Shown here piece after piece: positions 14,849-32,998 of a DNA stretch of 64,000 bases (its first letter is position 1; every line of letters begins with the position of its first letter). A program made the translations under genes and the position numbers. This stretch comes from Pantoea phytobeneficialis (GTDB taxonomy: Bacteria; Pseudomonadota; Gammaproteobacteria; Enterobacterales; Enterobacteriaceae): assembly GCF_009728735.1 (NCBI RefSeq), contig NZ_CP024639.1, forward strand, positions 124,001 to 188,000, in the 5' to 3' direction. The notes beneath the pieces are model-generated. The model had not been told where the DNA came from, made no database searches, and saw nothing but the letters and a program-made list of their open reading frames with translations.

Positions 14849-14864
14849 TCATCATCAACATCGT

Positions 14865-15980: not shown

Positions 15981-16016
15981 GTCTTTTCCTGGTATTGATA
16001 ACTGGGCTTGTATGCC

Positions 16017-17291
16017 TTAAGCGGTGTGTTCCAAAGCCTGAATCAGGTCATTCAGGATATCTTCAATATCTTCTATTCCGACAGACAGACGGATCATTTC
16101 CGGTGAAACACCCGCAGCGAGCAACTCGGCGTCGTTCAGTTGCCGGTGGGTTGTCGATGCCGGATGACAGGCGAGTGAACGTGCATCACCAATGTTTACC
16201 AGGCGCTTAAACAGGTTGAGTGCATCATAAAATGCCTCTCCTGCGGCAAATCCCCCTTTTAACCCAAAGGACAATATGCCTGACGGGCGGCCCTGCATAT
16301 ACTTAATCGCGAGCTCGTGATGGCGATGACCGGGCAATCCCGCATAATTGACCCATGAAACGGCGGGATGGTTTTGAAGAAATTCAGCGACCTTGAGGGT
16401 GTTTTCTACATGCGCCTTCATACGTAAAGTTAGCGTCTCCAGGCCCTGGAGGATAAGAAATGCATTCATTGGAGATAATGCCGCGCCTGTATTTCTGAGG
16501 GGAACCGTGCGCGCTCTGGCGATAAAGGCCGCATCACCAAAAGTTTCTGTGTAAACAACACCATGATAAGCAGGTTCAGGTGAGGTGAGGCAAGCGAATT
16601 TTTCCGGATGCAAATGCCAGGGAAATTTTCCCGCATCGACGATGACGCCACCCAGTGAGTTACCATGTCCTCCAACATATTTGGTCAATGAGTGGACCAC
16701 GATGTCTGCACCATGTTGGATAGGCTTGCATAAAACGGGTGAGGCGACGGTGTTATCCACCATCAATGGGATGTGGTGCCGATGCGCAACCTCTGCCAGA
16801 CCGGCAATGTCGATAATGTTACCCGCTGGATTACCAATACTTTCACAGAAAACGATTTTAGTATTTTGGTCGATCGCCTTTTCAATTGCCTCGGGTGTGT
16901 CATTCTCGGCAAAAGTCACCTTTATCCCCAGCCCCGGTAACATATGGGCTAAAAGCGTATAGGTACCGCCGTACAATTGCGGTGTTGCAACGATGTTGTC
17001 CCCTGAGCGAGCGAGCGCCAATATTGCAGCGGTAATAGCGGCACTCCCTGAAGATAATACCAAAGCGGCAATCCCTCCCTCGAGGGCTGCCATTCGTTTC
17101 TCCAGCACATCATTTGTCGGGTTCATTATGCGGCTGTAAATGTTACCCGGTACTTCCAGATTAAACAGATCGGCGGCATGCTGTGCACTGTCAAATTCAT
17201 AAGCCACGTTTTGATAAATAGGAACCGCGACACTTTTTGTGACGGGGTCGCACTGAAATCCGGCATGAATGGCAAGCGTGGCATCTTTCAT
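16017..17291 (-). CDS. metY: O-acetylhomoserine sulfhydrylase (aminocarboxypropyltransferase)
   Basis: A 424-residue PLP enzyme of the Cys/Met metabolism family. The start at 17291 (Met-Lys-Asp-Ala-Thr-Leu) has GGAGAG before it; an open frame extends 48 codons upstream but lacks family similarity. Recognizable blocks are LSSGSAAITAA, NPAGNIIDI, VDNTVASP and the PLP lysine segment HSLTKYVGGHG. The enzyme makes homocysteine from O-acetylhomoserine and sulfide, and relatives accept methanethiol to give methionine directly. It is divergent from the putative ergothioneine operon across a 318-base region, suggesting recapture of released sulfur. Most enterics use O-succinylhomoserine and MetB, so its presence is noteworthy. 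Confidence 0.9.
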   Translation of the reverse strand: MKDATLAIHAGFQCDPVTKSVAVPIYQNVAYEFDSAQHAADLFNLEVPGNIYSRIMNPTNDVLEKRMAALEGGIAALVLSSGSAAITAAILALARSGDNIVATPQLYGGTYTLLAHMLPGLGIKVTFAENDTPEAIEKAIDQNTKIVFCESIGNPAGNIIDIAGLAEVAHRHHIPLMVDNTVASPVLCKPIQHGADIVVHSLTKYVGGHGNSLGGVIVDAGKFPWHLHPEKFACLTSPEPAYHGVVYTETFGDAAFIARARTVPLRNTGAALSPMNAFLILQGLETLTLRMKAHVENTLKVAEFLQNHPAVSWVNYAGLPGHRHHELAIKYMQGRPSGILSFGLKGGFAAGEAFYDALNLFKRLVNIGDARSLACHPASTTHRQLNDAELLAAGVSPEMIRLSVGIEDIEDILNDLIQALEHTA

Positions 17292-17342
17292 TATTCTCTC
17301 CTTAAAATGTGTAATGAATGGCGTAGCGGAATAAGTAAATTG

Positions 17343-17360
17343 TGCATTAGATGTAATGCA
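17343..17360. promoter_or_regulatory. Palindrome in front of metY
   Basis: TGCATTA and TAATGCA are exact reverse complements around GATG, centred about 60 bases upstream of the metY start. A further TAATGCAC half site is at 17447-17454. Likely a dimer binding site; it does not resemble a MetJ box. The adjacent LacI protein is one candidate binder. Confidence 0.4.
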
Positions 17361-17430
17361 TCTCTGGAATGACTTCAATCCCTCCTGTTTTACATATCCA
17401 GGATAAAAATTATGTTGCGATCCATGCTGG

Positions 17431-17447
17431 TGCACTAAAATGGTGCT
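17431..17447. promoter_or_regulatory. NtrC (NR-I) binding site
   Basis: The 17-base element reads TGCAC-TAAAAT-GGTGC-T, matching the two-fold symmetric NtrC consensus TGCAC(C)-N-(G)GTGCA and closely resembling the glnA enhancer sites. Its centre lies about 105 bases upstream of the transcription start predicted from the sigma-54 promoter at 17519-17534, the spacing seen for the glnA site. Partly overlapping half sites (TGGTGCAC before it, GTGCTAATGCAC after it) may add a second weak site. Confidence 0.75.
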
Positions 17448-17518
17448 AATGCACGTTATTTGATCGAGTTATTTAGGTAATACAGGGTAAAAACGCGAAC
17501 AAAAACGGTTTTGTTAAC

Positions 17519-17534
17519 TGGCATTTTGCTTGCA
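17519..17534 (+). promoter_or_regulatory. Sigma-54 (-24/-12) promoter
   Basis: TGGCA-TTTTGC-TTGCA matches the sigma-54 consensus TGGCAC-N5-TTGCA/T, with GG and GC exactly ten bases apart. The predicted start near 17545 leaves a leader of about 65 bases before the DUF917 ATG at 17610. Together with the upstream NtrC box this predicts activation under nitrogen limitation. Confidence 0.75.
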
Positions 17535-17609
17535 GCTAACTATAAATATCGACTTATTTTATTTTTAAATAAGCTTATTAATAAATTGTACTGTCATGGT
17601 GATTGATAA

Positions 17610-18689: not shown

Positions 18690-18700
18690 TAGGGCGTTTT

Positions 18701-19303
18701 ATGATCAAGTTGTATGACAGCAAACTTTCAGGCAATGCATGGAAAATTAGATTGATGCTGAACTTTTTACAGATCCCTTATGTAAGGGAAACGCTTAATC
18801 TGGCCGAAGGAAAGCATAAAGAAGACGCCTTTAAAAAAATTAACCCCTTTGCTCGCATTCCCGCTGTGGAGCTTGCAGACGGACGCTTCCTGAATGAGTC
18901 TAACGCCATACTGCTCTATTTTGCCGAGGGCACTTCTTTATTACCTGTCGATCCCGTATTACGGTGCAAAATCAATGCATGGTTGTTCTTCGAACAAGCG
19001 GATTTGCTGCGCTTTTTGGCGTACCCACGCTTTTATACCATGATCAATCAACGTGAAAAGCACCAGGATATTATTTCTCATTATATGGAATTAGGTAAAC
19101 CCGCCCTTACCCATGTAGATAAGTGTCTCGAAAAGAATACCTGGATTGCGGGTGAAAGCCTGAGTGTGGCCGATTTTAGCCTCTATCCTTATATTTCGAT
19201 GGCTGAAGAAGGTGGATATGTATTAAATGAGTGGCCATCGATCCAGCGCTGGTTGAAAGATTTTAAAGATATCCCTGGTTACGAAAATATTGTGAACGCC
19301 TGA
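18701..19303 (+). CDS. Glutathione S-transferase family protein
   Basis: A 200-residue GST. The N-terminal thioredoxin-like domain starts IKLYDSKLSGNAWKIRL, has the cis-Pro ARIPAVEL segment near residue 52 and NESNAILLYFA near 66; the alpha-helical C-terminal domain contains the conserved SVADFSLYPYI segment. A Ser or Asn in SGNAWK could be the glutathione-activating residue. It begins 11 bases after the DUF917 gene and precedes the urocanase homologue by 74 bases. In this operon it might carry out a glutathione-dependent step on a thione, disulfide or oxidized intermediate, but nothing in the sequence proves that. Confidence 0.86.
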   Translation: MIKLYDSKLSGNAWKIRLMLNFLQIPYVRETLNLAEGKHKEDAFKKINPFARIPAVELADGRFLNESNAILLYFAEGTSLLPVDPVLRCKINAWLFFEQADLLRFLAYPRFYTMINQREKHQDIISHYMELGKPALTHVDKCLEKNTWIAGESLSVADFSLYPYISMAEEGGYVLNEWPSIQRWLKDFKDIPGYENIVNA

Positions 19304-19377
19304 TGCTTATTCTGCGTCATTACTTTTTCATCAGGTAGTTAATGGGTTAACTTTTTCGATTGTTCAGGATATTAATT

Positions 19378-21009
19378 ATGTCACGTAAGATTACTGCCCA
19401 GCGGGGTAGCGAACTCCGGTGTAAAGGATGGCGCCAGGAAGCCATTCTCAGAATGCTGGAAAATAATCTTGAGAATGCTGAGAACCCCGATCAACTGGTG
19501 ATCTACATGGCCTGGGCGAAAGCGGCACGAGACTGGGTGAGTTTTGACCAGACGGTCGATGCGCTTAAGCGTCTCGAAAGCAACCAGACCCTGGTGATGC
19601 AATCGGGTAAACCTGTGGGGATTTTTCCATCACAAAACACCACGCCTGTCGTGTTAATGGCTAACGGCAATGTGGTTGGCGGATGGGCGGGGGACGATGA
19701 TTATCGCAAGCTTGAGCGGGCGGGACTCACCGTTATGCCGGGGATGACGGCTGCCGCCTGGCAATATATTGGTAGCCAGGGCATTTTGCAGGGCACCTAT
19801 GAGACATTCATGTCTGCGGCGCGTGAACATTTCTCGGGCAGTCTGGCGGGGCGGCTGATTGTTACAGGAGGATGTGGCGGCATGAGTGGTGCGCAACCCC
19901 TTGCCGGACAGCTCGCCGGTGCGGCCACCCTGGTGGTTGAGGTTGACGAAAACAAAATCCAGCGTCGGCTGGACAGCGGTTATTGCCAGGTCCTGACATA
20001 TGAGCTGGATGAAGCGCTTGCTCTGTGCGCCAATGCTCAACGTGCAGGAAAAGGCATCTCAGTAGGGCTGGTTGGAAATATTGCTGAAGTTTTAACTGTG
20101 CTGGTTGAACGCGGTCTGACACCGGATATCGTCACCGATCAGACGATTGCTGAACCGGTAAACGGCTATTTCCCGCTTGGCGTGACAAAAGAAGACGTCG
20201 TGAGCTTACGCCAATCGGATCCTGAAAAACTGAAGGCTTTGTCCTACGCAACCATCAGGCAGCATGTTTCAGCGATGCTGACGTTGCAGGAACGTGGAGC
20301 CATCGTTTTTGAGTACGGGAATAATCTCCGAAAATATGCGAGTGAAGCCGGGGTCAGTGCGGCCTTTGAAATTCGTTCGTTTATTGAAATGTTTATCCGT
20401 CCACTTTTCTGTCAGGGGATTGGCCCCTTCCGTTGGATTGCAGTAAGTGGCGATCCTCAGGACATTTATAAAATTGATGGTCTGGTGCTGGAATTGTTTC
20501 CGGGCAACCAGCGGATTGTCGACTGGATAAAAACCGCCAGAGATAACGTTCAGTTCACCGGCCTGCCAGCGCGTATCGGCTGGATGGGATATGGCGAACG
20601 CAAGAAACTGGCGCTGGCCGTCAATCAACTGGTGGCGGAGGGTAAGATTGGACCGATTGCCTTCACGCGTGATCATCTTGATTCTGGATCTGCCACCTTG
20701 CCGCACCGTGAAACTGAAAATATGTCTGACGGTTCGGATGCGATTGCCGACTGGCCAATCCTGAATGCCTTACTGAACTGCGGGTCAGGTGCCGATCTGG
20801 TGGCCGTTCACTCTTTAGGTAACTGGGGGGTCTCGGCAGGAGTGACCACGGTAGCGACCGGGGATCAGGATGCGGCGGAGCGGTTATCGCGGGTGATGGA
20901 TAATGATACCGGCATCGGTATTCTGCGTCACGCCAGTGCCGGGTATGAAACTGCGGTAGACCTTGCCCGCGAGTCGGGGCTGGGTATCTCTGCGCAGTTT
21001 AAGGATTAA
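19378..21009 (+). CDS. Urocanase-family hydratase, probable (S-methyl-)thiourocanate hydratase
   Basis: A 543-residue urocanase homologue of usual family length. ATG 19378 is preferred because AGGA lies eight bases upstream; a TTG six codons earlier lacks such a site. The NAD-binding loop is kept (GGCGGMSGAQPLAG, from about 164), as is GLPARI near 395. Urocanase hallmarks are altered: the GLPAR(I)CW cysteine is Gly at about 401, the usual TSAHDPLNGY reads TIAEPVNGYF near 256, and the HHGGGVG loop reads HSLGNWGVS near 478. These changes in the substrate pocket argue against plain urocanate. With the MIO-less lyase and DUF917 protein nearby, thiourocanate or S-methyl-thiourocanate is the best candidate substrate. 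It lies five bases before the molybdoenzyme gene. Confidence 0.82.
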   Translation: MSRKITAQRGSELRCKGWRQEAILRMLENNLENAENPDQLVIYMAWAKAARDWVSFDQTVDALKRLESNQTLVMQSGKPVGIFPSQNTTPVVLMANGNVVGGWAGDDDYRKLERAGLTVMPGMTAAAWQYIGSQGILQGTYETFMSAAREHFSGSLAGRLIVTGGCGGMSGAQPLAGQLAGAATLVVEVDENKIQRRLDSGYCQVLTYELDEALALCANAQRAGKGISVGLVGNIAEVLTVLVERGLTPDIVTDQTIAEPVNGYFPLGVTKEDVVSLRQSDPEKLKALSYATIRQHVSAMLTLQERGAIVFEYGNNLRKYASEAGVSAAFEIRSFIEMFIRPLFCQGIGPFRWIAVSGDPQDIYKIDGLVLELFPGNQRIVDWIKTARDNVQFTGLPARIGWMGYGERKKLALAVNQLVAEGKIGPIAFTRDHLDSGSATLPHRETENMSDGSDAIADWPILNALLNCGSGADLVAVHSLGNWGVSAGVTTVATGDQDAAERLSRVMDNDTGIGILRHASAGYETAVDLARESGLGISAQFKD

Positions 21010-21014
21010 CGGTC

Positions 21015-23336
21015 ATGTCACTCTCGCCAGAACGTAAAATCCTGACTTCAACCCACTGGGGTATTTACGAGCTTCATATTGAGAATTCGGCCCTCGTTGC
21101 GGTTAAACCGTGGGCGGAAGACCCGGAACCTTCACCAATTGGTCAATCACTGCCAGGGGCGATCGACGGGCCGGTGCGTATCGCCCGTCCTTTGATTCGT
21201 AAAGGGTGGCTGGATAAGACATCCAGAGAAGCTACCCCGCGCGGCAGAGATGCGTTTATTGAGGTTTCCTGGGATGAGGCGCTGGGGATCGTGGCAGCCG
21301 AACTGGATCGGGTACGGCAACAATATGGGAATCAGGCTATTTATGCGGGTTCCTATGGCTGGGCAAGCGCAGGGCGTTTTCACCATGCGCAAAGCCAGAT
21401 TCATCGCTTTCTGAATCTGATCGGCGGGTACACGAGTTCAGAGAACACCTATTCGTCAGCGGCGGGTGAAGTGGTGCTGCCGTATATCATTGGCAACCAA
21501 TATGGTCTGGTCAGCCACTACACCACCTGGGAACAGATCGCCAGTCACGGTGAGCTGGTGCTGGCGTTTGGCGGTCTACCAGGGCGTAACAGTCAGATTC
21601 AGGGGGGGGGCGTTGGCAGACATCTGCACAATGCATCCCTGCAACGTGCTGTGGAGCAGGGCGTGCGATTTATTAATCTCTCCCCCTGTCGCGATGATAT
21701 GCCAGAGAACATCCCTTCTGAGTGGTTACCGCTGCGACCCACCACGGATAGCGCATTACTCCTGGCATTGTGCTACGAGCTGATTCAGCAGCAACGTTAC
21801 GATAAGGCGTTTATCGAGCGATTCACCGTCGGATTTGAGCAGATTTCAGCTTATTTGCGGGGTGATAACGATGGCATTGTGAAAGACGCCGCATGGGCGG
21901 CGGCTATCTGCCAGATCCCGGAAGCCAAAATTAGAGAACTGGCCGATCTAATCGCCTCGCACCGTACGATGGTCATGGTTAATTGGGCGATTCAGCGAGC
22001 AGAGTTCGGCGAGCAACCTTACTGGGCGGCTGTCACCCTGGCAGCGCTATCCGGTGATATTGGGCTGCCAGGGGGGGGATTCGGCTTTGGTTATGCCTGT
22101 CTGAATGGCGTCGGACAAAATGAGCTGGGTTATCGTTGGCCCAGTCTGCCTCAGGGTAAAAATCCGGTTGCTGAAAGCATCCCGGTTGCGCGTCTGGCAG
22201 ACATGCTTCTGGCTCCGGGTGATGAGTATGACTTCAACGGCATGACCCGGCGTTATCCGGACATCCGACTGGTGTACTGGGCCGGTGGCAATCCTTTTCA
22301 CCACCATCAGGATCTCAATCGGCTGGTTAAGGCGTGGCAACAGCCGGAAACCATCATTGTTCAGGAGCCGTTCTGGAACGCGACCGCTCGGCATGGCGAT
22401 ATCATCCTGCCCGTCACGACTTCATTTGAACGCAATGACATCGCGCTGGTAAATCGTGATAACACGATTGTTGCCATGAAAAAAGCGCTCCCTGCCTTCA
22501 GGGAAGCGCGTGATGATTATCATATTTTTCAATCTATTGCGCAGCAACTCGGCATAGAAGAAAACTTTACCCTGGGCCGGACCGCTGAGGAGTGGGTGGA
22601 GGATTTGTATGAACAATCCCGTAAAAGGAATCCCCTTCTGCCGCCGTTTGACCAGTTCTGGCAGGAAGAGGTGGTGACCTTTGCCCAGCCAGCAAGCCAT
22701 TACAATCTTCTGGAGGATTTCAGGGCAGATCCTGCGCGTTGCCCCCTGATGACAGCATCAGGACGTATTGAACTCTATTCACAACCGGTTGCCGATTATG
22801 GCTATACGGAGTGCCCTGGGCATGCGGTCTGGCGGGAACCCGAGGAGTGGTTGGGGGCGCCGCTGGCGCGCACCTATCCGATTCATCTGTTGTCGCCGCA
22901 GCCAGCGGATAAATTGCACAGTCAATACGACCACGGCAAGGTGAGCCAGTCAGCAAAAATCCACGGAAGAAACCGGCTGTTGATGCATCCGCTGGATGCG
23001 CAGCACAGAGGGATTGTTGCGGGTGATGTTGTGCGGATTTTTAACTCCCGTGGGCAGTGCCTGGCCGGTGTAAAACTCAGTGATGCCATGATGCCGGGTG
23101 TAGCGCAGCTCCCGACAGGTGCCTGGTTTGATCCTTTATATCAGGATGGGGAGTGTCTGGATAAACAGGGTAATCCCAATGTACTGACACAGGACAAGGG
23201 AAGCTCCCGACTTTCACAGGGGCCGAGTTGTAATTCTTTGTTGGTTGAGATTGAGCGTTATATTTCGCGATTGCCAGAAATCACCGCGTTCACGCCACCA
23301 CAGATATTAAGGCGATGTCAGAATGTTAAAGAATAA
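21015..23336 (+). CDS. BisC/TorZ-like molybdopterin oxidoreductase, cytoplasmic
   Basis: A 773-residue member of the DMSO reductase family, similar along its whole length to biotin sulfoxide reductase BisC: THWGIYEL near 13, RPLIRKGWL, AGSYGWASAGRFHHAQ near 111, YSSAAGE near 146 (Ser147 as the likely Mo ligand), WAIQRAEFGEQPYW, WAGGNPFHHHQDLNRL and a C-terminal cofactor-clamping domain. No N-terminal cysteine cluster for Fe-S and no Tat signal, as in BisC, so it is cytoplasmic with bis-MGD as sole expected cofactor. It starts five bases after the urocanase homologue. Known relatives reduce S-oxides and N-oxides. Here it could repair a sulfoxide of ergothioneine or of an intermediate, or act on trimethylamine oxide; the reaction is unknown. 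Confidence 0.85.
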   Translation: MSLSPERKILTSTHWGIYELHIENSALVAVKPWAEDPEPSPIGQSLPGAIDGPVRIARPLIRKGWLDKTSREATPRGRDAFIEVSWDEALGIVAAELDRVRQQYGNQAIYAGSYGWASAGRFHHAQSQIHRFLNLIGGYTSSENTYSSAAGEVVLPYIIGNQYGLVSHYTTWEQIASHGELVLAFGGLPGRNSQIQGGGVGRHLHNASLQRAVEQGVRFINLSPCRDDMPENIPSEWLPLRPTTDSALLLALCYELIQQQRYDKAFIERFTVGFEQISAYLRGDNDGIVKDAAWAAAICQIPEAKIRELADLIASHRTMVMVNWAIQRAEFGEQPYWAAVTLAALSGDIGLPGGGFGFGYACLNGVGQNELGYRWPSLPQGKNPVAESIPVARLADMLLAPGDEYDFNGMTRRYPDIRLVYWAGGNPFHHHQDLNRLVKAWQQPETIIVQEPFWNATARHGDIILPVTTSFERNDIALVNRDNTIVAMKKALPAFREARDDYHIFQSIAQQLGIEENFTLGRTAEEWVEDLYEQSRKRNPLLPPFDQFWQEEVVTFAQPASHYNLLEDFRADPARCPLMTASGRIELYSQPVADYGYTECPGHAVWREPEEWLGAPLARTYPIHLLSPQPADKLHSQYDHGKVSQSAKIHGRNRLLMHPLDAQHRGIVAGDVVRIFNSRGQCLAGVKLSDAMMPGVAQLPTGAWFDPLYQDGECLDKQGNPNVLTQDKGSSRLSQGPSCNSLLVEIERYISRLPEITAFTPPQILRRCQNVKE

Positions 23337-23492
23337 ATGTTCCTGCGAATTTCCATGATCTTTTTATGAGGAATTAGCCAGAGCGGGTTATTGAAACTTC
23401 AGGTTGCCCGACTACTTATAATCTTCCACTGCAATATCTTGTCCGAGGTGCAGGGAGTGATGTTTATTTAATTTACTACAGGTAAGATTAAT

Positions 23493-24890
23493 ATGTCTTT
23501 GAATGACTTTGCATGTGAAAAAATCATTTTAGGTACTGTGGTTCTTTCCGATAAAATTATTGAAGATGGCTTTGTCGCGATCAGCAATGGCCTGGTGGTT
23601 GCGGTAGGTGAAAGGGGGCAATCATTGCCCCAAACCAATGATCTCATCGATTACCGTGGCAGTTATATTTTTCCGGGTGCGATTGATGCTCAGGTTCATA
23701 GTCGTAGCCAGAAAGGCAATGAGGATTTTATCTGGTCAACCAAGGCGGCTGCCGCTGGTGGTGTGACCACCATTGTCGATATGCCATATGATGCAGGTCG
23801 ACTTATCTGTAATGAAGAGCTATTCAACCTCAAAAGAAAAGAAGCAGAAGAGCAGGTAAGAGTTGATTTTGCGTTGTATGGCACTGTGCATCCGGAGGAA
23901 GGGAAGCAGCACCTGGAAGCCATGGCTCAGGCTGGCGCGATAGGCTTCAAATTCTCAAGTTTTGGTACGGATGCCCAGCGTTTTCCACGTATTGCTCCTC
24001 ATATGTTGTATGAGTGTTTTAGTGAAATAGCTAAACTCGGCTTGATTGCTGGTGTGCATAATGAGAATGATGAATCCGTAAAATATCTAATTGAAAAATT
24101 AAAGCAGGAAAATATCACCGACTATCGTGCGCATAATCTTTCACGTCCACGTTACACTGAAAATATTGCCAGTGCGGAAGTGTATGAATTAGGCGCGGAA
24201 ACGGGGTGTCGTGCGCATATTGTCCATTGCTCTAATGGTCGTGGTATTGAATTATGCAAAAGCTATCGCGATCTGGGGTACGACGTGACGGTCGAAACCT
24301 GCCTGCATTATTTAACTCTGAGTGAAGAAGAGGATGTGGCCCGGTTGGTGGGGAAAGCAAAAATTAATCCCCCGGTGCGGCAAAAGGCAGAACGTGAAGC
24401 GCTGTGGCAGCATCTCGAAAAAGGGAATATTACGGTCCTTTCGACCGACCACGTAAGTTGGTCACTGGAGCGTAAAAACTCTGCGAATATGTTCGAGAAT
24501 GCTTCCGGTGCGTCAGGGCTGGAATTACTGGTAACCCTGGCACTTACCGGTGCTGAACAGCGCAATATCGCTTTCCATCATCTGGCCAAAGTCCTCAGCT
24601 ACAATGCTGCCCGGCTGTTCCGGCTGGACAATTGTAAAGGCGCGCTGGAATCTGGCAAAGATGCCGATCTGATCATCATCAAACGCGATCCCTATATCTA
24701 CTCAGCAGCTGAAAGTGGCAACAACTTCTCTCCGTGGTCACCCTATGACGGGCGCGAAATCTATTATCGCGTTGAACGAACCATGCTGAGAGGTGAGTGG
24801 ATTTATGCCGACAATGCCGTGACGGCTGAGCCGGGTAATGGCCAGTTCGTCTCTCCACATTGTCGCCGTGAGGTGGCGGAAAAATGCTAA
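23493..24890 (+). CDS. Hydantoinase/allantoinase-like amidohydrolase
   Basis: A 465-residue cyclic amidohydrolase. Visible elements are PGAIDAQVHSRS near 56 (first metal-site segment, with Gln in place of the usual first His of DxHxH), GFKFSSFG near 155 (candidate carboxylated Lys), GVHNEND near 187, IVHCSNG near 246 and STDHVSW near 317 (metal Asp). It would open a hydantoin ring, most likely 5-hydantoin propionate to N-carbamoylglutamate. Its last seven bases overlap the N-carbamoylase gene. A 156-base gap separates it from the molybdoenzyme; TATAAT at 23417-23422 hints at an internal promoter, but the nearest TTGAAA is 20 bases away, longer than ideal. Allantoinase is the main alternative. 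Confidence 0.85.
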   Translation: MSLNDFACEKIILGTVVLSDKIIEDGFVAISNGLVVAVGERGQSLPQTNDLIDYRGSYIFPGAIDAQVHSRSQKGNEDFIWSTKAAAAGGVTTIVDMPYDAGRLICNEELFNLKRKEAEEQVRVDFALYGTVHPEEGKQHLEAMAQAGAIGFKFSSFGTDAQRFPRIAPHMLYECFSEIAKLGLIAGVHNENDESVKYLIEKLKQENITDYRAHNLSRPRYTENIASAEVYELGAETGCRAHIVHCSNGRGIELCKSYRDLGYDVTVETCLHYLTLSEEEDVARLVGKAKINPPVRQKAEREALWQHLEKGNITVLSTDHVSWSLERKNSANMFENASGASGLELLVTLALTGAEQRNIAFHHLAKVLSYNAARLFRLDNCKGALESGKDADLIIIKRDPYIYSAAESGNNFSPWSPYDGREIYYRVERTMLRGEWIYADNAVTAEPGNGQFVSPHCRREVAEKC

Positions 24891-26149
24891 TTAATGATTC
24901 CCGTATGTGGCATTGGCTGCTGACGCTGGGTCAATATACCGATCCTGCACAACCCTATACCCGACGTTCATTCAGCGAACACTTTCTAGCAGGCAGAAAT
25001 TGGCTGACGCAACAGATGAAAATGCTGGGTCTGGATACGCACATTGACAGCGCAGGCAATCTAATCGGTCGTATCAATGGTACCGAACCTGATGCCGGAA
25101 CCCTGGTGATTGGTTCTCACAGCGATACGGTTCCGGGCGGCGGTCGCTTTGATGGTATTGCTGGAGTCATTGCCGGTCTCGAATGCATTGCCACGATGAA
25201 GCACGCCAGTTATCGCCCCCGGCATAGCATTGAGATCATTGACTATCTGGCTGAAGAACCCAGTGAGTGGGGTATTTCCTGCGTCGGTAGCCGGGGGATT
25301 AGTGGCTTTCTGAATGAGGCCCTGCTGAAAACGCTTCATCCTGAAACCGGTGAGTCGTTACGTGATGCAATCCGCAGAATGGGGGGGAAACCAGACCAAC
25401 TCAGCATCAGAAAGGACATCAAAGCCAGCTTCGAACTGCATATTGAGCAGGGACAGATCCTGGAGCAACACCATGAAGATATTGGGATCGTCAGTGGCAT
25501 CGTAGGGATTTTACGTCTGTCGCTAACGCTGGTGGGTCAGGCTGCACACGCAGGGACGACGCCGATGAATATGCGACAGGATGCCCTGGTTGCCGCTGCA
25601 AATACGATTCAGCGGGCAGATAAGCTTGCTCGTGAGGTATCAGCTGCTGGCGAGCATCATATCACGGTGACCTGCGGACAAATTTTTTCTTCTCCCAATG
25701 CCAGTAATGTGGTGCCTGGTGAAGTTCGGCTGGTGTTTGATATTCGTTCTGACAGCCATCAGGTGATGGAGGATTATGCTGATGCGCTCAGGAATATTAC
25801 CGGGCAGGTAACGCAGGAGTTCGGCGTTTCATTACAGGATTTCGCCATCCTTACGGATACGCAACCCACACTCTGTAACGCGCAGTTGATGTCGCTGATC
25901 CAGCAGTCATCTCAGCAGCGGGGATGGTTGTCCCGCGTTATGCCCAGTGGTGCAGGGCATGACAGCGCCTTCCTGGCGACGCTCGCACCCGCAGCAATGC
26001 TTTTTGTCCCCAGTTTACTGGGGAAAAGCCACTGCCCGGAGGAATGGACGTCGCAGGAGCAACTGGCTCGTGGCATCAGTGTCCTGCTTGATACAGTCCT
26101 CGCATTTGACAGGCAGGGATTCGAACCATCGGTACGCAACGTTTCCTGA
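24884..26149 (+). CDS. N-carbamoyl-L-amino acid hydrolase (M20/HyuC family)
   Basis: A 421-residue M20-type metalloamidase. Metal and substrate motifs are plain: GSHSDTVPGGGRFDG near 77-91, a Glu-Glu pair in LAEEPSEWG near 125, HIEQGQ near 187, HAGTTPMNMRQDA near 222 and the C-terminal SGAGHDSAFLA. HyuC and allantoate amidohydrolase share this layout. It starts inside the end of the hydantoinase gene, so the two are translationally coupled and probably act in sequence, releasing an amino acid (glutamate in the proposed route), CO2 and ammonia. Confidence 0.88.
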   Translation: MLINDSRMWHWLLTLGQYTDPAQPYTRRSFSEHFLAGRNWLTQQMKMLGLDTHIDSAGNLIGRINGTEPDAGTLVIGSHSDTVPGGGRFDGIAGVIAGLECIATMKHASYRPRHSIEIIDYLAEEPSEWGISCVGSRGISGFLNEALLKTLHPETGESLRDAIRRMGGKPDQLSIRKDIKASFELHIEQGQILEQHHEDIGIVSGIVGILRLSLTLVGQAAHAGTTPMNMRQDALVAAANTIQRADKLAREVSAAGEHHITVTCGQIFSSPNASNVVPGEVRLVFDIRSDSHQVMEDYADALRNITGQVTQEFGVSLQDFAILTDTQPTLCNAQLMSLIQQSSQQRGWLSRVMPSGAGHDSAFLATLAPAAMLFVPSLLGKSHCPEEWTSQEQLARGISVLLDTVLAFDRQGFEPSVRNVS

Positions 26150-26161
26150 ATATCAGACAGT

Positions 26162-26189
26162 GCCCCTCTGAAAGCATGAGTTGAGGGGC
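26162..26189 (+). promoter_or_regulatory. Intercistronic hairpin before the ABC importer genes
   Basis: GCCCCTC and GAGGGGC (7-base stem, 14-base loop) lie between the carbamoylase stop and the ATPase start. Only A residues follow on the plus strand, so it is not an intrinsic terminator in this direction. It may stabilize or separate transcript segments. Confidence 0.4.
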
Positions 26190-26218
26190 TGCTCAAAAAA
26201 TAAGGCAGTAGGCTAATC

Positions 26219-27322
26219 ATGATTTCGTTCGAGAACGTCACAAAACATTATGAAGATGGGACCCTGGTTGTGGACCGTCTTTCTTTTACTGCGCCTACGG
26301 GGAAGTTGACTATTCTTGTCGGCCCTTCGGGATGCGGAAAGACGACAACATTGCGCATGATCAATCGTTTGATTGAGCACTCATCAGGGAAAATTTTACT
26401 TAATGATCAGTCGATTGAAGAATTGGATGTCGTCAAATTAAGAAGAAAAATTGGTTACGTTATTCAAAATGCCGGGCTTTTCCCGCATAAAAACATCGTT
26501 GATAACATTGCAGTGACCGCCATGCTTAATGGTGCAACGCGCCACGCGGCGCGTAAAACTGCCATGGAATTGCTGGAGCGTGTTGGCCTGTCTGCATCGC
26601 TGGCAAATCGCTATCCCTGGCAACTTTCCGGTGGGCAACAGCAGCGGGTCGGGGTTGCCCGCGCTCTGGCGTCCGATCCTGAATTTATGCTGATGGATGA
26701 ACCCTTTAGCGCGGTTGATCCTGTTGTGCGCGAGCAGCTTCAGGATGAGTTTTTGCGTCTGCAAAGGGAAATTGGCAAAACCATTATCATGGTCACGCAT
26801 GATATTGATGAAGCGATGAAGTTGGGTGACCAGGTTGCCGTTCTCATGCCAGGGGGACGACTGGCACAAGTTGCCTCACCGGCTGAACTCCTGACCTCAC
26901 CGAAGAGTCCGTTTGTCGCCGATTTTATCGGCAGGGATCGCGGGTATCGTCGTTTAACCTTTAGCCCATTGCAGCCTCAATTACCCCTGCAAACAGAACC
27001 CACCGTTGATCTGGGTGAGAGCGTCATGCGGGCCAGAGCTGTGGCTCAGGGACGCTGGATACTGGTCACTGGACAGAATAAACCACTGGGATGGTTTGAT
27101 CTGGAACTGGCCACTGAGTCAACGATTGAACTCAGTGATATCAATCTGGGGAGCACTTTTTCGCCTCTTTCCGGCAATTTGCGTCAGCTGACAGATGCGG
27201 TACTCAGTTCACCCTGCCAGCGTGGTGTCATTGTTGATGACGAGCAGCAACTGATGGGAACGCTGGGGTTTGATGATGTGCTGGACGTTCTGCGCGCCAG
27301 CAACAAGGCGGTGGGGCTATGA
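26219..27322 (+). CDS. Betaine/choline-type ABC importer ATPase (OpuCA/OsmV-like)
   Basis: A 367-residue ATPase. Walker A is GPSGCGKTT near 38, the Q-loop is IQNAGLFPHK, the signature LSGGQQQRV near 139, Walker B FMLMDEPFSAVDP and the H-loop VTHDIDEA. A C-terminal region of about 110 residues (from about 255) is CBS-like, as in OpuCA-type quaternary-amine importers. Its stop overlaps the first permease start by four bases. In this operon the likely cargo is a betaine such as ergothioneine (a trimethylated thiohistidine) or hercynine rather than an osmolyte. Confidence 0.87.
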   Translation: MISFENVTKHYEDGTLVVDRLSFTAPTGKLTILVGPSGCGKTTTLRMINRLIEHSSGKILLNDQSIEELDVVKLRRKIGYVIQNAGLFPHKNIVDNIAVTAMLNGATRHAARKTAMELLERVGLSASLANRYPWQLSGGQQQRVGVARALASDPEFMLMDEPFSAVDPVVREQLQDEFLRLQREIGKTIIMVTHDIDEAMKLGDQVAVLMPGGRLAQVASPAELLTSPKSPFVADFIGRDRGYRRLTFSPLQPQLPLQTEPTVDLGESVMRARAVAQGRWILVTGQNKPLGWFDLELATESTIELSDINLGSTFSPLSGNLRQLTDAVLSSPCQRGVIVDDEQQLMGTLGFDDVLDVLRASNKAVGL

Positions 27323-27969
27323 GATTTGACTGGCTTTTACGGCAAAGCGATCAGATAGCCCAGTTGTTTCTCTGGCATCTCTGGTTATCCGTGTTACCAG
27401 TGGTCATCGGCCTGGCACTGGCGCTCCCGGCTGGCGGACTGATTCAGCGACTACCCCGTCTGAAAGCGGTACTGCTTAACCTGTTGGGGTTGTTATATAC
27501 CATTCCTTCCCTTGCGTTATTTATTTTACTCCCCGGCATTCTGGGCACACGCATTCTGGATACGGTTAATGTGATGGTCGCTCTGGTGATTTATGCCTTT
27601 GCACTGCTGGTGCGTACGGTATGCGATGGGCTGGATTCCGTATCACCAGATACTCGTCAGGCTGCCATCGCATTGGGATACAAGCCCTTTCATCAGTTTC
27701 TCACGATCGACCTTCCCGTCGCGATCCCTGTTATAGCCGCTGGATTTCGGGTAGCGGTGGTCTCGAACGTGAGCATTGTATCGATTGCAGCCCTGGTGGG
27801 AACGCCGCAGCTTGGCAGCCTGTTTACACAAGGGTTTCAGCTACAGTTCCTGACGCCGATCATCGCGGGTGTGGTTTTGTGTGTCCTGCTGGCGTTGTTG
27901 CTCGACAGCCTGGTGGTGTATGGCACGCACAAGCTGGTGGTATGGCAACCGGCAAGGAGAAAATCATGA
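27319..27969 (+). CDS. Betaine/choline-type ABC importer permease (OpuCB-like)
   Basis: A 216-residue inner-membrane permease with about five to six hydrophobic segments and the binding-protein-dependent transport EAA-like loop in ALGYKPFHQFLTIDLPVAIPVI. It overlaps both neighbours by ATGA junctions, typical of OpuC/OsmVWXY operons with two separate small permeases. It would form the membrane channel with the product of 27966-28685. Confidence 0.87.
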   Translation: MRFDWLLRQSDQIAQLFLWHLWLSVLPVVIGLALALPAGGLIQRLPRLKAVLLNLLGLLYTIPSLALFILLPGILGTRILDTVNVMVALVIYAFALLVRTVCDGLDSVSPDTRQAAIALGYKPFHQFLTIDLPVAIPVIAAGFRVAVVSNVSIVSIAALVGTPQLGSLFTQGFQLQFLTPIIAGVVLCVLLALLLDSLVVYGTHKLVVWQPARRKS

Positions 27970-28685
27970 TTGCATGGTTTGCTGACAGTTCACACTGGCT
28001 GGGAGATGACGGCTTGCTGCTCCTGATTTGGCAGCATCTGCTTTACAGTGCGGTTGCTCTGGTGTGCACATTGCTGGTGGCTTTTCCGATTGGTTGTTAT
28101 TGCGGGCACACCGGGAAAGGTGAACGCGTGTTGATAGGGTGCGCGAACGCGCTCAGGGCTTTACCGTCTTTTGGTCTGATCATTATTCTGGTGATTATCT
28201 TAGGCCCGGTTTTCACCTCGGATTTGGCTTTCATTATACCCAGCCTGATTGTCTTAATCGTACTGGCGTTACCATCAGTTATGCTCGGAGTATGGTCTGG
28301 TATCACCAGCATCGACCGTACCGTTATTGATGCGGCCAGAGGAATGGGCTATTCCCCGTGGCGTTTACTGTTAACGGTGGAATTACCTTGTGCGTTACCT
28401 TTAATTATCTCCGGTATTCGAAGTGCGACGCTACAGATCATCTCTACGGCGACCATTGCTGCTTATGTCTCTTTAGGTGGCTTAGGACGATTGATTATTG
28501 ATGGGCGTGCGCAGAGTGATTACCAGCAAATGATCGCAGGTGCATTGTTAGTGGCTGTTTTAGCGTTATTAGTTGACTTTATATTTTCATTATTAATCAG
28601 GGTAGTGGTTTCGCCCGGTATTTTACGGCGTGAAACATCACAAAAATCTTCCGTTCCATCTATTCTTACACGCAACCGGAGTTAA
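27966..28685 (+). CDS. Betaine/choline-type ABC importer permease (OpuCD-like)
   Basis: A 239-residue permease. The start at 27966 forms an ATGA overlap with the previous stop and has AGGAGA upstream; a longer open frame to 27621 lies inside the first permease gene and is ignored. It shows hydrophobic segments from about residue 19 and the EAA-like loop AARGMGYSPWRLLLTVELPC near 120, followed by ISTATIAAYVSLGGLG. Paralogue and partner of the preceding permease. Confidence 0.87.
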   Translation: MIAWFADSSHWLGDDGLLLLIWQHLLYSAVALVCTLLVAFPIGCYCGHTGKGERVLIGCANALRALPSFGLIIILVIILGPVFTSDLAFIIPSLIVLIVLALPSVMLGVWSGITSIDRTVIDAARGMGYSPWRLLLTVELPCALPLIISGIRSATLQIISTATIAAYVSLGGLGRLIIDGRAQSDYQQMIAGALLVAVLALLVDFIFSLLIRVVVSPGILRRETSQKSSVPSILTRNRS

Positions 28686-28690
28686 CTTAA

Positions 28691-29566
28691 ATGAAATTGA
28701 GTCATTTATTTGCGGCATCTCTGTTATCGCTCGCTTTTTGCCAGGTCACCCATGCAGCAGAAGCGTCAGAAACGATTATTATTGGTTCAGCAGACTTCCC
28801 TGAGAGTCAGGTCCTGGCAACTATTTATGCGGATGCACTGGCGGCAAAAAATATTCATGTAGAAAGAAAAATGAATATTGGGAGTCGCGAAGTCTATATG
28901 CCCGCGCTGATTGACGGGTCGGTCAATCTTATGCCTGAGTACACCGGTGCCGCGCTGCAATATTTTGATAAAAAATCACAGGCCAAAACGACCGAGCAGG
29001 TGGCCGGTGACCTTGTAAAAGCGCTGCCCAAAGGCATCACCATGCTGACACCGTCGCAAGCTCAGGACGTGGTGACACTGGCAGTGACCGAAAAAACAGC
29101 GGAAAAGTTTAAGCTGAAAGATATTGGTGACCTGAAAACGCACAGTCAAAGTATGACACTGGGCGGCCCGGCTGAATGGAAAACGCGTCCCGAAGGGTTG
29201 CCGGGACTGAAATCTGTCTATGGTCTTGAGTTCAAATCCTATAAAACGCTGGATGTTTGTGGCCCACTGACATTATCGGCGCTGGTGAACGGTCAGGTTA
29301 ATGTTGCCTGTGTATTCTCAACCGATCCCTCGATTAAGACCAGAAATTTAGTTTCTCTTAACGACACGCAGAATTTAAATCCGGTGCAGAACGTTGTCCC
29401 TCTTATTTCTTCGGCTAAGGTCAATAGCACGGTAACTGACACGTTGAATGCCATCTCACAGGCATTAACGACACAGGATCTGATTGCGATGAATGCGCGT
29501 CTCGATAATCATGATGATTACGATGTTATTGCTTCTGACTGGCTCAAAGCACACAAATTAAATTAA
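28691..29566 (+). CDS. Periplasmic quaternary-amine binding protein (OsmF/OpuCC/EgtU-like)
   Basis: A 291-residue protein with a signal peptide cleaved near residue 22 (THA-AEA). The mature part has ADFPESQVLATIYADAL and PEYTGAALQYF, typical of glycine-betaine/choline binding proteins of the OpuC class, and a C-terminal DYDVIASDWLKAHKLN helix. EgtU, the ergothioneine-binding domain found in some bacteria, belongs to the same class. Six bases separate it from the permease gene. Location directly before the MIO-less lyase supports a trimethylammonium-histidine ligand, but specificity cannot be read safely from sequence alone. Confidence 0.85.
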   Translation: MKLSHLFAASLLSLAFCQVTHAAEASETIIIGSADFPESQVLATIYADALAAKNIHVERKMNIGSREVYMPALIDGSVNLMPEYTGAALQYFDKKSQAKTTEQVAGDLVKALPKGITMLTPSQAQDVVTLAVTEKTAEKFKLKDIGDLKTHSQSMTLGGPAEWKTRPEGLPGLKSVYGLEFKSYKTLDVCGPLTLSALVNGQVNVACVFSTDPSIKTRNLVSLNDTQNLNPVQNVVPLISSAKVNSTVTDTLNAISQALTTQDLIAMNARLDNHDDYDVIASDWLKAHKLN

Positions 29567-29573
29567 TGCCGCC

Positions 29574-29610
29574 GCAGGTGGGGAGCGCGTTTCTCCACCT
29601 GCATATTTTT
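29574..29610 (+). terminator. Attenuator-like hairpin between binding protein and lyase genes
   Basis: GCAGGTGG (29574 onward) pairs with CCACCTGC (ending 29602), with part of the intervening bases also able to pair, and ATATTTTT follows immediately. It looks like an intrinsic terminator that may allow only partial read-through into the lyase gene, which starts at 29621. Confidence 0.6.
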
Positions 29611-29620
29611 GGATAAAAAA

Positions 29621-31168
29621 ATGAAAGATTTCATGCATGCTGTGCTGAAGAAAAAAGAGATGATAACTCTCAGTGAGCAAGGGTGTACGGTTGAGGATAT
29701 TGTTGCCATTGCCGCCGGTGCAAAAGTGATGCTTGCCCCATGTTCTCTGGAAAATATGAGAAAAACGCAGCAGCTAATGCAGGATGCAATTACCAGTGGC
29801 ATTCCCATATATGGCCTGACGACTGGCGTTGGTGACCTGTACAGTGTCAAACTTTCTCCCGAAGAAATCAGACAAACACAACTCAACATGTTACGCAGTC
29901 ATGCCAGCGGCGTGGGCACCCCACTGGATAGCTGGAATGTTCGCGCCATTATGGCCACGATTATTGTCGCCATGCTGAAAGGTGCGAGCGGTGTTTCACC
30001 CGAATTGCTGGAAACAATGGCCGCCATGTTAAACAAAGGCGTGACACCGCGGGCACCATTAGGTGGATCTGTGGGCTATCTGATCGCGACAGCACATATC
30101 GGACTGAGTGTCTTTGGTTATGGAGAGTCATGGTTTGAGGGTGAATGGCTATCGGGCGCTGAAGCCATGCAACGCGCGGGTATTACGATTCGCGAACCCG
30201 GCCCAAGGGAAGGACATGCATTAATCAGCGGCACCTATGAGATCTCCGGACTCGGTGCTATCGCGTTGGTGCGGTGCGAAGCGCTGATCGCGCTTGCCGA
30301 CCTTGCGGGGGCAATGAGTTTAGAATCTATGCGCGGAAATGTAAGTGGATTCGATCCCCGACTGCACCGTTTTCGCCCGCATCCCGGCCAACTGGAAACC
30401 GCGGATCGGCTTCTGAAGCTTTTAGCCGACAGTGAAATTCTTGATGCACATCGGCATTACCGTCTACAGGATGCACTGAGTTTACGCTGTATTCCTCAGG
30501 TCCACGGCGCAGTTCGGGATGCAATCACGTATTGCAGGAAAGTGCTGACTACCGAGCTCAATTCACTGACAGACAATCCTATTTTCATTGTGGAAGATGA
30601 TGAGCTGGTCGCGTTACCTGGGGGCAATGGACACGGGGCACCTGTTGCGCTGGCACTGGATAATCTGGCGATTGCGGTTGCCACATTATCTACGATTTCT
30701 CAGGCCAGAAGTGACCGGCTTGTGAATCAGCACCTGAGCGGATTGCCTGCATTTCTCTCGGGCCGTGAGGGCGGAGGGTCTGCATTTTCTATCTCACCTT
30801 GTATTGCTGCTGCGCTCTCGGCGGAGAATCGTGCGCTTGCCGCACCAGCCTCCGTGCATACCCTGTCCACAGTGGCCGGACAGGAAGATCATATTTCTCA
30901 AGGCGCGTTGGCAGCGCGTAAGGTGCAGACTGCGATTGAAAATCTGGCGGATTTATTGAGTGTCGAATTGCTCTGCGCGGCACAGGCGCTGGATTTCCAT
31001 AAACCGTTGCGTCCGGGAAAAGCGACAGTGGCTGCGTGGGAATTAATAAGAACTAAAGTCACCTTCCGCGTCAGTGATCGTGAAATGTACCCGGACCTTG
31101 CCGATGTGCGCCGTTTTATTGATGATGGCAGTTTGAATCATATTGTGGATAACGTACTCAGCGGTTGA
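29621..31168 (+). CDS. HAL-family lyase lacking the MIO triad, probable ergothionase (trimethylamine lyase)
   Basis: A 515-residue member of the aromatic amino acid lyase family of typical length. ATG 29621 has GGA seven bases upstream; a TTG four codons earlier is an alternative. YGLTTGVGDLYS (near 64) replaces YGxNTGFG and keeps the catalytic Tyr, and the family's SLTDNPI-type segment and C-terminal AAQALDF helices are present. The cofactor segment GSVGASGDLAPLAH is replaced by GSVGYLIATAHIG (about 149-161), so the Ala-Ser-Gly precursor of the MIO cofactor is absent. Elimination of trimethylamine from a quaternary betaine would not need MIO. With a betaine importer upstream, ergothioneine to thiourocanate, or hercynine to urocanate, is the inferred reaction. 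Confidence 0.82.
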   Translation: MKDFMHAVLKKKEMITLSEQGCTVEDIVAIAAGAKVMLAPCSLENMRKTQQLMQDAITSGIPIYGLTTGVGDLYSVKLSPEEIRQTQLNMLRSHASGVGTPLDSWNVRAIMATIIVAMLKGASGVSPELLETMAAMLNKGVTPRAPLGGSVGYLIATAHIGLSVFGYGESWFEGEWLSGAEAMQRAGITIREPGPREGHALISGTYEISGLGAIALVRCEALIALADLAGAMSLESMRGNVSGFDPRLHRFRPHPGQLETADRLLKLLADSEILDAHRHYRLQDALSLRCIPQVHGAVRDAITYCRKVLTTELNSLTDNPIFIVEDDELVALPGGNGHGAPVALALDNLAIAVATLSTISQARSDRLVNQHLSGLPAFLSGREGGGSAFSISPCIAAALSAENRALAAPASVHTLSTVAGQEDHISQGALAARKVQTAIENLADLLSVELLCAAQALDFHKPLRPGKATVAAWELIRTKVTFRVSDREMYPDLADVRRFIDDGSLNHIVDNVLSG

Positions 31169-31177
31169 CAGGCTGAT

Positions 31178-31234
31178 ATGGCCAGTATGTTTAGCCTCCT
31201 GTTATCCGGGAACCATTGGGCTAGAACTGGCCAT
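31178..31234. terminator. Long inverted repeat between convergent genes
   Basis: ATGGCCAGT (31178-31186) and ACTGGCCAT (31226-31234) are exact reverse complements enclosing a 39-base loop with a further partial pairing (TTTAGCC with GGGCTAGA). It lies between the lyase stop and the convergent LysR stop and may end transcription from both sides, although no T-tract is present. Confidence 0.45.
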
Positions 31235-31248
31235 TTCGTGGCAGAGTA

Positions 31249-32987: not shown

Positions 32988-32998
32988 GAGAATAATTG

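What the first reader, a model, noticed from the sequence alone, without database searches (positions are those of the whole stretch)
16017..31168. Putative ergothioneine uptake and breakdown locus in an enteric bacterium
Twelve genes fit one route: OpuC/EgtU-type betaine importer; HAL-like lyase without MIO triad; diverged urocanase; DUF917 (S-methyl-thiohydantoin desulfurase family); hydantoinase; N-carbamoyl-amino acid hydrolase; divergent metY. Established background, from memory: ergothionase, thiourocanate hydratase, thiohydantoin desulfurizing enzymes and hydantoin/carbamoyl hydrolysis are known from other bacteria, and EgtU-type importers bind ergothioneine. The combination with a molybdoenzyme, GST and NtrC/sigma-54 control is what seems new. 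Substrate remains an inference.
Basis: partly seen in the sequence, partly recalled or inferred. Interest (0 to 1): 0.95.

Follow-up and report, generated by a model that had tools for sequence, protein, structure and literature searches.

The report
S-methyl-ergothioneine salvage island in Pantoea
A 16-kilobase gene island in a Pantoea bacterium, likely on a plasmid and likely acquired from another lineage, carries genes predicted to import a sulfur-methylated form of the dietary antioxidant ergothioneine and break it down to glutamate, and would probably rescue the released sulfur as methionine.

Summary
In detail: the twelve genes at 16017-31168 are real and conserved in order. The interpretation needs one correction and some additions. 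Curated NCBIfam models place the DUF917 and urocanase-like proteins above cut-off as S-methyl thiohydantoin desulfurase and S-methyl thiourocanate hydratase and below cut-off for the non-methyl versions; the two hydrolases pass as ErtD and ErtE. The predicted substrate is S-methyl-ergothioneine: trimethylamine leaves first, methanethiol later, glutamate remains. A divergent metY could turn methanethiol into methionine. The core recurs in Agrobacterium, Bradyrhizobium and Chelativorans; a GST follows the desulfurase in 14 of 19 loci and a DMSO-reductase-type molybdoenzyme is near it in 5 of 19; their roles are unknown. Carriers are rare: 1 of 392 family genomes, 4 of 61 Pantoea genomes. Both flanks match a Pantoea sp. 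At-9b plasmid that shows no match to the island. A sigma-54-type promoter is conserved in three Pantoea lineages. A LacI gene belongs to the unit; the LysR gene does not. The importer-lyase cassette also occurs elsewhere, often beside urocanase genes. Core chemistry known, arrangement a new variant; nothing tested biochemically.

The parts
14970..15980 (-). LacI-family regulator; local regulator of the unit (inferred)
   Evidence: Pfam LacI + Peripla_BP; adjacent in all 4 Pantoea genomes found to carry the unit
16017..17291 (-). MetY, O-acylhomoserine sulfhydrylase; predicted methanethiol capture as methionine
   Evidence: TIGR01326 642 bits, cut-off 495.1; present in 3 of 4 Pantoea units; start moved to the ATG at 17291 from reading
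17431..17446 (+). NtrC-type palindrome TGCACTAAAATGGTGC
   Evidence: only exact match in the window; 2 matches at up to 1 mismatch against 0.75 expected; not kept exactly in L074/L075
17498..17515 (+). inverted repeat AACAAAAACGGTTTTGTT with central CG, LacI-operator-like
   Evidence: exact, and only match in the window at up to 3 mismatches, 0.27 expected; kept but for one base in the other lineages aligned
17519..17534 (+). sigma-54-type promoter TGGCATTTTGCTTGCA
   Evidence: one mismatch to the consensus; TGGCAT-N5-TTGCA kept in L035/L075 and L074
17610..18689 (+). S-methyl thiohydantoin desulfurase (DUF917)
   Evidence: NF058532 569.5 bits, cut-off 450
18701..19303 (+). glutathione S-transferase family protein, conserved partner, role unknown
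   Evidence: Pfam GST_N/GST_C; follows the desulfurase in 14 of 19 loci; SGN motif in 12 of 13 and ESxAI in 13 of 13 aligned GSTs
19378..21009 (+). S-methyl thiourocanate hydratase
   Evidence: NF058531 970.5 bits, cut-off 880; best solved relative 8q9v, E 1.9e-202
21015..23336 (+). MGD molybdoenzyme, S/N-oxide reductase type, probably cytoplasmic
   Evidence: best solved relative DMSO reductase 1eu1, E 9.2e-198; GSYGW and YSSAA regions; no signal peptide by eye
23493..24890 (+). ErtD, hydantoin-5-propionate amidohydrolase
   Evidence: NF058538 703.7 bits, cut-off 600
24884..26149 (+). ErtE, N-carbamoyl-L-glutamate amidohydrolase
   Evidence: NF058540 526.6 bits, cut-off 520
26219..27322 (+). 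betaine-type ABC importer, ATPase
   Evidence: best NCBIfam model proV TIGR01186, 282.4 bits, below its cut-off 326.6; cassette conserved
27319..27969 (+). betaine-type ABC importer, permease 1
   Evidence: ORF; in the cassette in 10 of 10 enteric loci fetched
27966..28685 (+). betaine-type ABC importer, permease 2
   Evidence: in-frame part of ORF 27621-28685; in the cassette in 10 of 10 enteric loci fetched
28691..29566 (+). separate substrate-binding protein, ProX/OpuC/EgtUC family
   Evidence: 1sw2 E 1.8e-23, EgtUC 9egj E 6.5e-19
29609..31168 (+). HAL-fold lyase without MIO; predicted trimethylamine lyase

Best explanation
The twelve genes at 16017-31168, with a LacI-type regulator gene at 14970-15980, form a likely horizontally acquired island that is predicted to import S-methyl-ergothioneine and break it down step by step to glutamate, trimethylamine and methanethiol. 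Predicted steps: (1) the ABC importer takes up the betaine; (2) the MIO-less lyase removes trimethylamine, giving S-methyl-thiourocanate; (3) the hydratase adds water, giving the S-methyl-thiohydantoin propionate; (4) the DUF917 desulfurase releases methanethiol, leaving hydantoin-5-propionate; (5) ErtD opens the ring to N-carbamoyl-glutamate; (6) ErtE yields glutamate, ammonia and CO2; (7) MetY would couple methanethiol, perhaps carried as a glutathione adduct with help of the GST, to O-succinylhomoserine to give methionine. The molybdoenzyme would most simply reduce an S-oxide form of the substrate back to the thioether. A sigma-54-type promoter upstream of the desulfurase gene would place the operon under nitrogen-type control, with LacI as substrate sensor. 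Shown by calls: gene content, family scores, conservation, motifs. Inferred: every reaction, the regulation and the origin.
For: Four enzymes pass curated cut-offs for this route, and the two sulfur-handling ones fail the non-methyl versions. The same holds for 4 of 4 DUF917 proteins (L033, L034, L047, L040) and 5 of 5 hydratases (L033, L034, L047, L040, L037) checked in other loci. Gene clustering recurs in Agrobacterium pAt, Lichenihabitans and loci (synteny). The lyase has lost the MIO triad, as published ergothionase lacks MIO (PMC13405746, passages). Its close relatives sit directly behind a betaine-type importer in 10 of 10 enteric loci fetched, 5 of them beside a urocanase gene, which is hutU in the 2 checked; this fits release of an amine from a histidine betaine. 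The O-acetylhomoserine sulfhydrylase of Rhodospirillum rubrum couples methanethiol as a glutathione adduct and also accepts O-succinylhomoserine (PMC4958253, passages); this genome has MetA over cut-off but no MetX over cut-off. S-methyl-ergothioneine occurs in mouse tissues and in human blood and urine (PMC5785509, passages). Sigma-54-type site conserved in 3 lineages; rpoN and ntrC present.
Against: No enzyme was tested. The lyase has no specific model and is closer in sequence and fold to HAL than to Treponema ergothionase; its relatives sit in at least two other kinds of gene neighbourhood, so its substrate is not fixed by family. The binding protein is only distantly EgtU-like. ErtE passes narrowly (526.6 against 520). 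The Chelativorans (L047) and Halioglobus (L051) loci hold lyases with another change at the MIO site, and the Lichenihabitans cluster has a HAL with the MIO triad. No methyltransferase was recognised in the unit, so the methylated compound would have to come from outside. MetY is missing in one of four Pantoea units (L074). The MetX cut-off was passed by none of 14 control genomes either, so absence of MetX rests on that and on the second model. Sigma-54-like sites with up to 2 mismatches are no more frequent in the window than in shuffles (38 against 46); the case rests on place and conservation. Roles of the GST and molybdoenzyme are guesses.
Confidence: 0.68

Rival explanations
1. The locus degrades plain ergothioneine, releasing sulfide; the S-methyl family labels reflect phylogeny rather than preference.
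For: Same reaction types; no methyltransferase recognised in the unit; MetY also uses sulfide (established for the family, recalled); the hydratase still scores 717.1 on the non-methyl model.
Against: Both non-methyl models fail their cut-offs by wide margins: 271.8 against 440 and 717.1 against 930; 9 of 9 further proteins checked behave the same.
Confidence: 0.15
2. The true substrate is another C2-sulfur derivative of a histidine betaine, for example an S-oxide, S-glutathionyl or other S-conjugate of ergothioneine, which the molybdoenzyme or GST first converts.
For: GST behind the desulfurase in 14 of 19 loci and a sulfoxide-reductase-type molybdoenzyme in 5 of 19; the molybdoenzymes of the Pantoea, Agrobacterium L033 and Bradyrhizobium L037 loci fall in one clade apart from three paralogues of the same genome.
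Against: The molybdoenzyme is not universal, for example not annotated within 16 kb of the Lichenihabitans gene; no direct evidence for such substrates; the same 51-member clade also holds 8 proteins named Mesorhizobium whose neighbourhood was not examined.
Confidence: 0.12
3. The genes degrade an ordinary hydantoin, allantoin or histidine compound and have no link to ergothioneine.
For: Fold families are shared with allantoinase, carbamoylases and the Hut enzymes; the urocanase-like protein also passes the broad hutU model (693.7, cut-off 375).
Against: Allantoinase and hutH models fail their cut-offs while ErtD and ErtE pass; MIO is lost; 2 of 2 hutU-type proteins checked from enterics score over 1000 on hutU and fail the S-methyl model, the reverse ranking of this protein.
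Confidence: 0.04

Closest known systems
S-methyl-ergothioneine branch of bacterial ergothioneine catabolism (NCBIfam NF058531, NF058532, NF058538, NF058540)
   Same: Hydratase, desulfurase, hydantoinase and carbamoylase pass the curated cut-offs.
   Different: Here with MetY, a conserved GST, a DMSO-reductase-type molybdoenzyme, an own importer-lyase cassette and a sigma-54-type promoter. The original biochemical papers are recalled, not read.
Agrobacterium tumefaciens Ach5 pAt cluster, NZ_CP011248.1 (L033)
   Same: DUF917, GST, ErtE, hydratase, molybdoenzyme, ErtD, a betaine-type importer, MIO-less lyase.
   Different: IclR regulator, an importer annotated as glycine betaine/proline type, another gene order, a lyase only 37% identical, no MetY within the 33 kb compared.
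Ergothionase of Treponema denticola (6s7j)
EgtU ergothioneine transporter
   Same: Same binding-protein family, E 6.5e-19 to EgtUC.
   Different: ProX proteins score higher; the binding protein is a separate polypeptide; specificity residues not shown to be kept. The EgtU paper states that S-methylated ergothioneine was not tested as ligand (PMC9732360, passages).
MTA-isoprenoid shunt of Rhodospirillum rubrum
   Same: Methanethiol released by one enzyme and captured by an O-acylhomoserine sulfhydrylase (PMC4958253, passages).
   Different: Different methylthio donor and different releasing enzyme.

Membership tests
S-methyl thiohydantoin desulfurase (NF058532) | score over curated cut-off 450 | tested here: met
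   569.5 bits
S-methyl thiourocanate hydratase (NF058531) | score over curated cut-off 880 | tested here: met
   970.5 bits
ErtD (NF058538) | score over curated cut-off 600 | tested here: met
   703.7 bits
ErtE (NF058540) | score over curated cut-off 520 | tested here: met
   526.6 bits, a narrow margin
Non-methyl ergothioneine route (NF058529, NF058530) | scores over cut-offs 440 and 930 | tested here: not met
   271.8 and 717.1 bits
Histidine ammonia-lyase (TIGR01225) | MIO-forming Ala-Ser-Gly and score over 539.15 | tested here: not met
   triad deleted; 478.2 bits
Ergothionase | HAL fold without MIO | tested here: met
   lack of MIO in ergothionase from PMC13405746, passages
Ergothionase | same branch as the characterised enzymes | tested here: inconclusive
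   HAL 7tqr ranks above 6s7j in sequence and fold; no residue alignment to 6s7j was obtained and the Burkholderia enzyme was not compared
Ergothionase | trimethylamine elimination from the betaine | not testable with these tools
   needs enzyme assay
EgtU | binding-protein family | tested here: met
   9egj E 6.5e-19
EgtU | aromatic cage and specificity residues given in PMC9732360 | tested here: inconclusive
   EgtUC was not aligned residue by residue; in the printed ProX alignment some cage positions, numbered from memory, are not aromatic here
BisC-type S/N-oxide reductase (TIGR00509) | score over 1017.55 | tested here: not met
   915.8 bits; the three own paralogues and the Agrobacterium protein also miss it
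DMSO-reductase-type catalysis | Tyr/Trp of GSYGW and serine ligand region | tested here: met
   aligned to 1eu1; motifs; roles of the residues recalled
O-acetylhomoserine sulfhydrylase MetY (TIGR01326) | score over 495.1 | tested here: met
   642 bits

The most novel reading that the evidence does not exclude
The island is a complete salvage system that strips nitrogen, carbon and sulfur from S-methyl-ergothioneine and its S-oxide: the molybdoenzyme reduces the S-oxide at entry, the GST hands methanethiol on as a glutathione adduct, and MetY makes methionine directly from it, so one dietary betaine yields glutamate and methionine under nitrogen control. The importer-lyase cassette is a swappable head that other enterics join to histidine breakdown or to a CoA route for other aromatic betaines.
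Probability: 0.25. Interest if true: 0.75.

Novelty: new variant of a known kind. Interest (0 to 1): 0.58.

Why it matters
S-methyl-ergothioneine is a metabolite of a dietary antioxidant, found in mouse tissues and in human blood and urine (PMC5785509, passages). A mobile, probably nitrogen-regulated operon for it in Pantoea, a genus with cultured strains, would make its microbial fate directly testable, and the conserved GST and molybdoenzyme would point to steps missing from the described route. If the inference holds that one importer-lyase cassette is joined to different downstream routes, it would also predict degraders of hercynine and other aromatic betaines in common enteric genera, each a possible trimethylamine source.

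Tried and rejected
Rejected: LysR (31249-32148) as regulator of the unit; it lies beside the GMC oxidoreductase genes in Pantoea sp. At-9b without the island and was not found beside the lyase in L074 or L075, whose stretches end 2-3 kb behind it. No match at near mode: the island in 'phages' and its part 17610-24000 in 'E. coli genomes'. Not found: a solved structure for the DUF917 protein by sequence; its AF2 model (pLDDT 87.1) has one match at E 0.001 or better, 2o3i, whose title names no function. Papers: the listings showed no paper on the enzymes of the S-methyl route; one search listed 25 of 4,250 papers, mostly unrelated hits of one short term, and the library lacks most subscription journals, so this does not show that nothing is in print. 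A phylum-wide sample found no further carrier (1 of 398, the window's own genome). A residue alignment to ergothionase 6s7j was not obtained because only top-ranked alignments are printed. A paper search for NtrC site sequences gave nothing. Base composition does not mark the island.

Caveats on my own counts: the sigma-54 pattern of the shuffle test (15 of 20000 shuffles match; NtrC pattern 1 of 20000; both 0 of 20000) was written after seeing the site. The contig-length coincidences used rows picked by eye: 32 of 120 listed DUF917 rows, 7 of 120 lyase rows, 11 of 120 molybdoenzyme rows. Of the 19 loci, 17 are all those returned (L033, L034) I chose from the 40 plasmid rows listed; many are cut at 10 kb flanks or contig ends, so counts of distant genes are lower bounds. 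The lyase tree used 116 of the 120 listed homologues (length filter) plus 15 others.
Full report
What is there. The window lies on contig C4 (290,617 bases) of a 5.7 Mb genome. The nearest named record is Pantoea sp. AS-PWVM4, whose locus L036 is 92-100% identical in the eleven proteins that it covers.

Which route. The decisive result is. The DUF917 protein scores 569.5 bits on NF058532, S-methyl thiohydantoin desulfurase (cut-off 450), and 271.8 on NF058529, the non-methyl enzyme (cut-off 440). The urocanase-like protein scores 970.5 on NF058531, S-methyl thiourocanate hydratase (cut-off 880), and 717.1 on NF058530, the non-methyl enzyme (cut-off 930). It also passes the broad hutU model (693.7, cut-off 375), but two hutU-type proteins from other enterics show the reverse ranking: 1016.5 and 1023.2 on hutU, 713.4 and 718.9 on NF058531 (2 of 2 checked). 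The hydantoinase passes ErtD (703.7, cut-off 600) and the carbamoylase passes ErtE narrowly (526.6, cut-off 520). In other loci, 4 of 4 DUF917 proteins and 5 of 5 hydratases checked also pass the S-methyl models and fail the non-methyl ones. The best solved relative of the hydratase is 8q9v, listed there only as urocanate hydratase; that it is a Variovorax S-methyl thiourocanate hydratase is recalled. Family labels are annotations, so the substrate stays a prediction.

A swappable head. Of 384 genomes of the family, 13 besides the window's have a lyase at 54% identity or more. I fetched 10 of the 13, and in all 10 the lyase directly follows the four importer genes. In 5 of 10 (L112-L116) the cassette is divergent from a urocanase gene; it is hutU in the two checked, with hutI and hutG behind it in L113 and an N-formylglutamate amidohydrolase in L115. 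In L111 and L113 a CaiB-type CoA-transferase, a 3-hydroxyacyl-CoA dehydrogenase and an enoyl-CoA hydratase follow the lyase; L108 and L109 show genes of similar size there, not scanned. I infer uptake of histidine or other aromatic betaines with loss of trimethylamine as the common function, and different downstream routes.

Conserved extra genes. Among 19 loci (L033-L051) with a DUF917 match, the GST follows it in 14, is absent there in 4 (L038, L039, L050, L051; the last two are only 38% and 35% identical in DUF917) and is cut off in 1 (L046). The molybdoenzyme at over 55% identity is in 5 of 19 (L033, L035, L036, L037, L047, the last cut by the end of the stretch). In a tree, those of Pantoea, Agrobacterium L033 and Bradyrhizobium L037 fall in one clade of 51 proteins with support 1.0, apart from three paralogues of the same genome; the clade also holds 8 proteins named Mesorhizobium, whose neighbourhood I did not see. 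The enzyme keeps the GSYGW and YSSAA regions of DMSO reductase and shows no signal peptide by eye, so a cytoplasmic S-oxide reductase is likely; its substrate is open. Contig lengths shared between protein lists suggest further co-location: 6 DUF917-molybdoenzyme pairs, and 5 DUF917-lyase pairs on 4 contig lengths, from rows picked by eye.

Methanethiol and MetY. Step four would release methanethiol. MetY passes its subfamily model (642, cut-off 495.1). The genome has MetA over cut-off and no MetX over cut-off; the two nearest proteins pass other models. None of the 14 control genomes passed the first MetX model either, so the second MetX model (134.1 against 331 for the nearest protein) matters here. 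O-succinylhomoserine is thus the likely partner. In Rhodospirillum rubrum such an enzyme takes methanethiol as a glutathione adduct and accepts both acyl-homoserines, kcat 3.5 and 1.3 per second (PMC4958253, passages). This is the best hint to a joint role of GST and MetY, but among the loci compared MetY was seen only in Pantoea and is missing from one of four units (L074).

Control. The 318-base gap between metY and the desulfurase gene holds TGGCAT-N5-TTGCA (17519-17534), kept with its 5' flank in L035/L053 and L054 although much of the gap has diverged. Matches of this quality are common: the window has 38 at up to 2 mismatches against 46 expected, so place and conservation carry the argument. 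An exact NtrC-type palindrome at 17431-17446 is unique in the window (2 matches at up to 1 mismatch, 0.75 expected); the other lineages keep only TGGTGC-N4-GCAC. Between them lies AACAAAAACGGTTTTGTT (17498-17515; 0.27 matches expected at up to 3 mismatches), LacI-operator-like by its central CG (recalled feature), conserved but for one base. RpoN and NtrC genes are present. Overall, sigma-54 control is supported by sequence, NtrC less so.

Mobility and rarity. Window 1-14907 and 31188-32200 match separate stretches of Pantoea sp. At-9b plasmid pPAT9B03 (88.6%; 96.4%); the near-mode search with 14900-32200 found nothing of the 16,280 bases between in that record (surroundings). GC is 50.3% inside, 52.2% and 51.2% outside. 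Carriers over cut-off: 1 of 392 genomes of the family, 4 of 61 of the genus, 1 of 398 of the phylum; the window's own genome is one of them in each sample. Outside Pantoea, the named hits over 60% identity are alphaproteobacteria, and 6 plasmid records of Agrobacterium and Lichenihabitans have one. I infer transfer from that group.

Verdict.

Noticed in passing
L112-L116 (unnamed enteric genomes): The same importer-lyase cassette sits divergent from a urocanase gene (hutU in L113 and L114, the two checked; hutI and hutG in L113); suggests uptake of hercynine and its conversion to urocanate and trimethylamine.
   Followed up: partly
L111, L113 (L108 and L109 by gene size): The cassette is followed by a CaiB-type CoA-transferase, a 3-hydroxyacyl-CoA dehydrogenase and an enoyl-CoA hydratase; suggests breakdown of another aromatic betaine through an acryloyl-CoA.
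   Followed up: partly
L034 15995-23787 (Lichenihabitans plasmid): S-methyl-type cluster with an ordinary MIO-bearing HAL and no molybdoenzyme or betaine-type importer annotated in the stretch; the substrate there may be a free amino acid such as an S-methyl thiohistidine.
   Followed up: no
window 28691-29566: Binding protein reads CVFSTD, as in L074 and L075, where the ten enteric cassettes begin this stretch with D (DMTSTD, DLTSTT, DLLSTT or DILSTT). Could mark a more hydrophobic pocket for an S-methyl group.
   Followed up: partly
window 17345-17362: CATTAGATGTAATGCATC is conserved in front of metY and, in L054, in front of the lacI-type gene; a possible second operator.
   Followed up: no
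window 1-14907: Tartrate and sugar-acid catabolic genes shared with Pantoea sp. At-9b pPAT9B03 at 88.6%.
   Followed up: partly
window 31249-35988: LysR gene beside a GMC-type dehydrogenase with small subunit and cytochrome c, also on pPAT9B03.
   Followed up: partly
G170, G258, G041, G188, G325 (L003-L007): Five family genomes have DUF917 proteins of 204-283 bits on the S-methyl model, below its cut-off of 450; other members of the family in other enterics.
   Followed up: no
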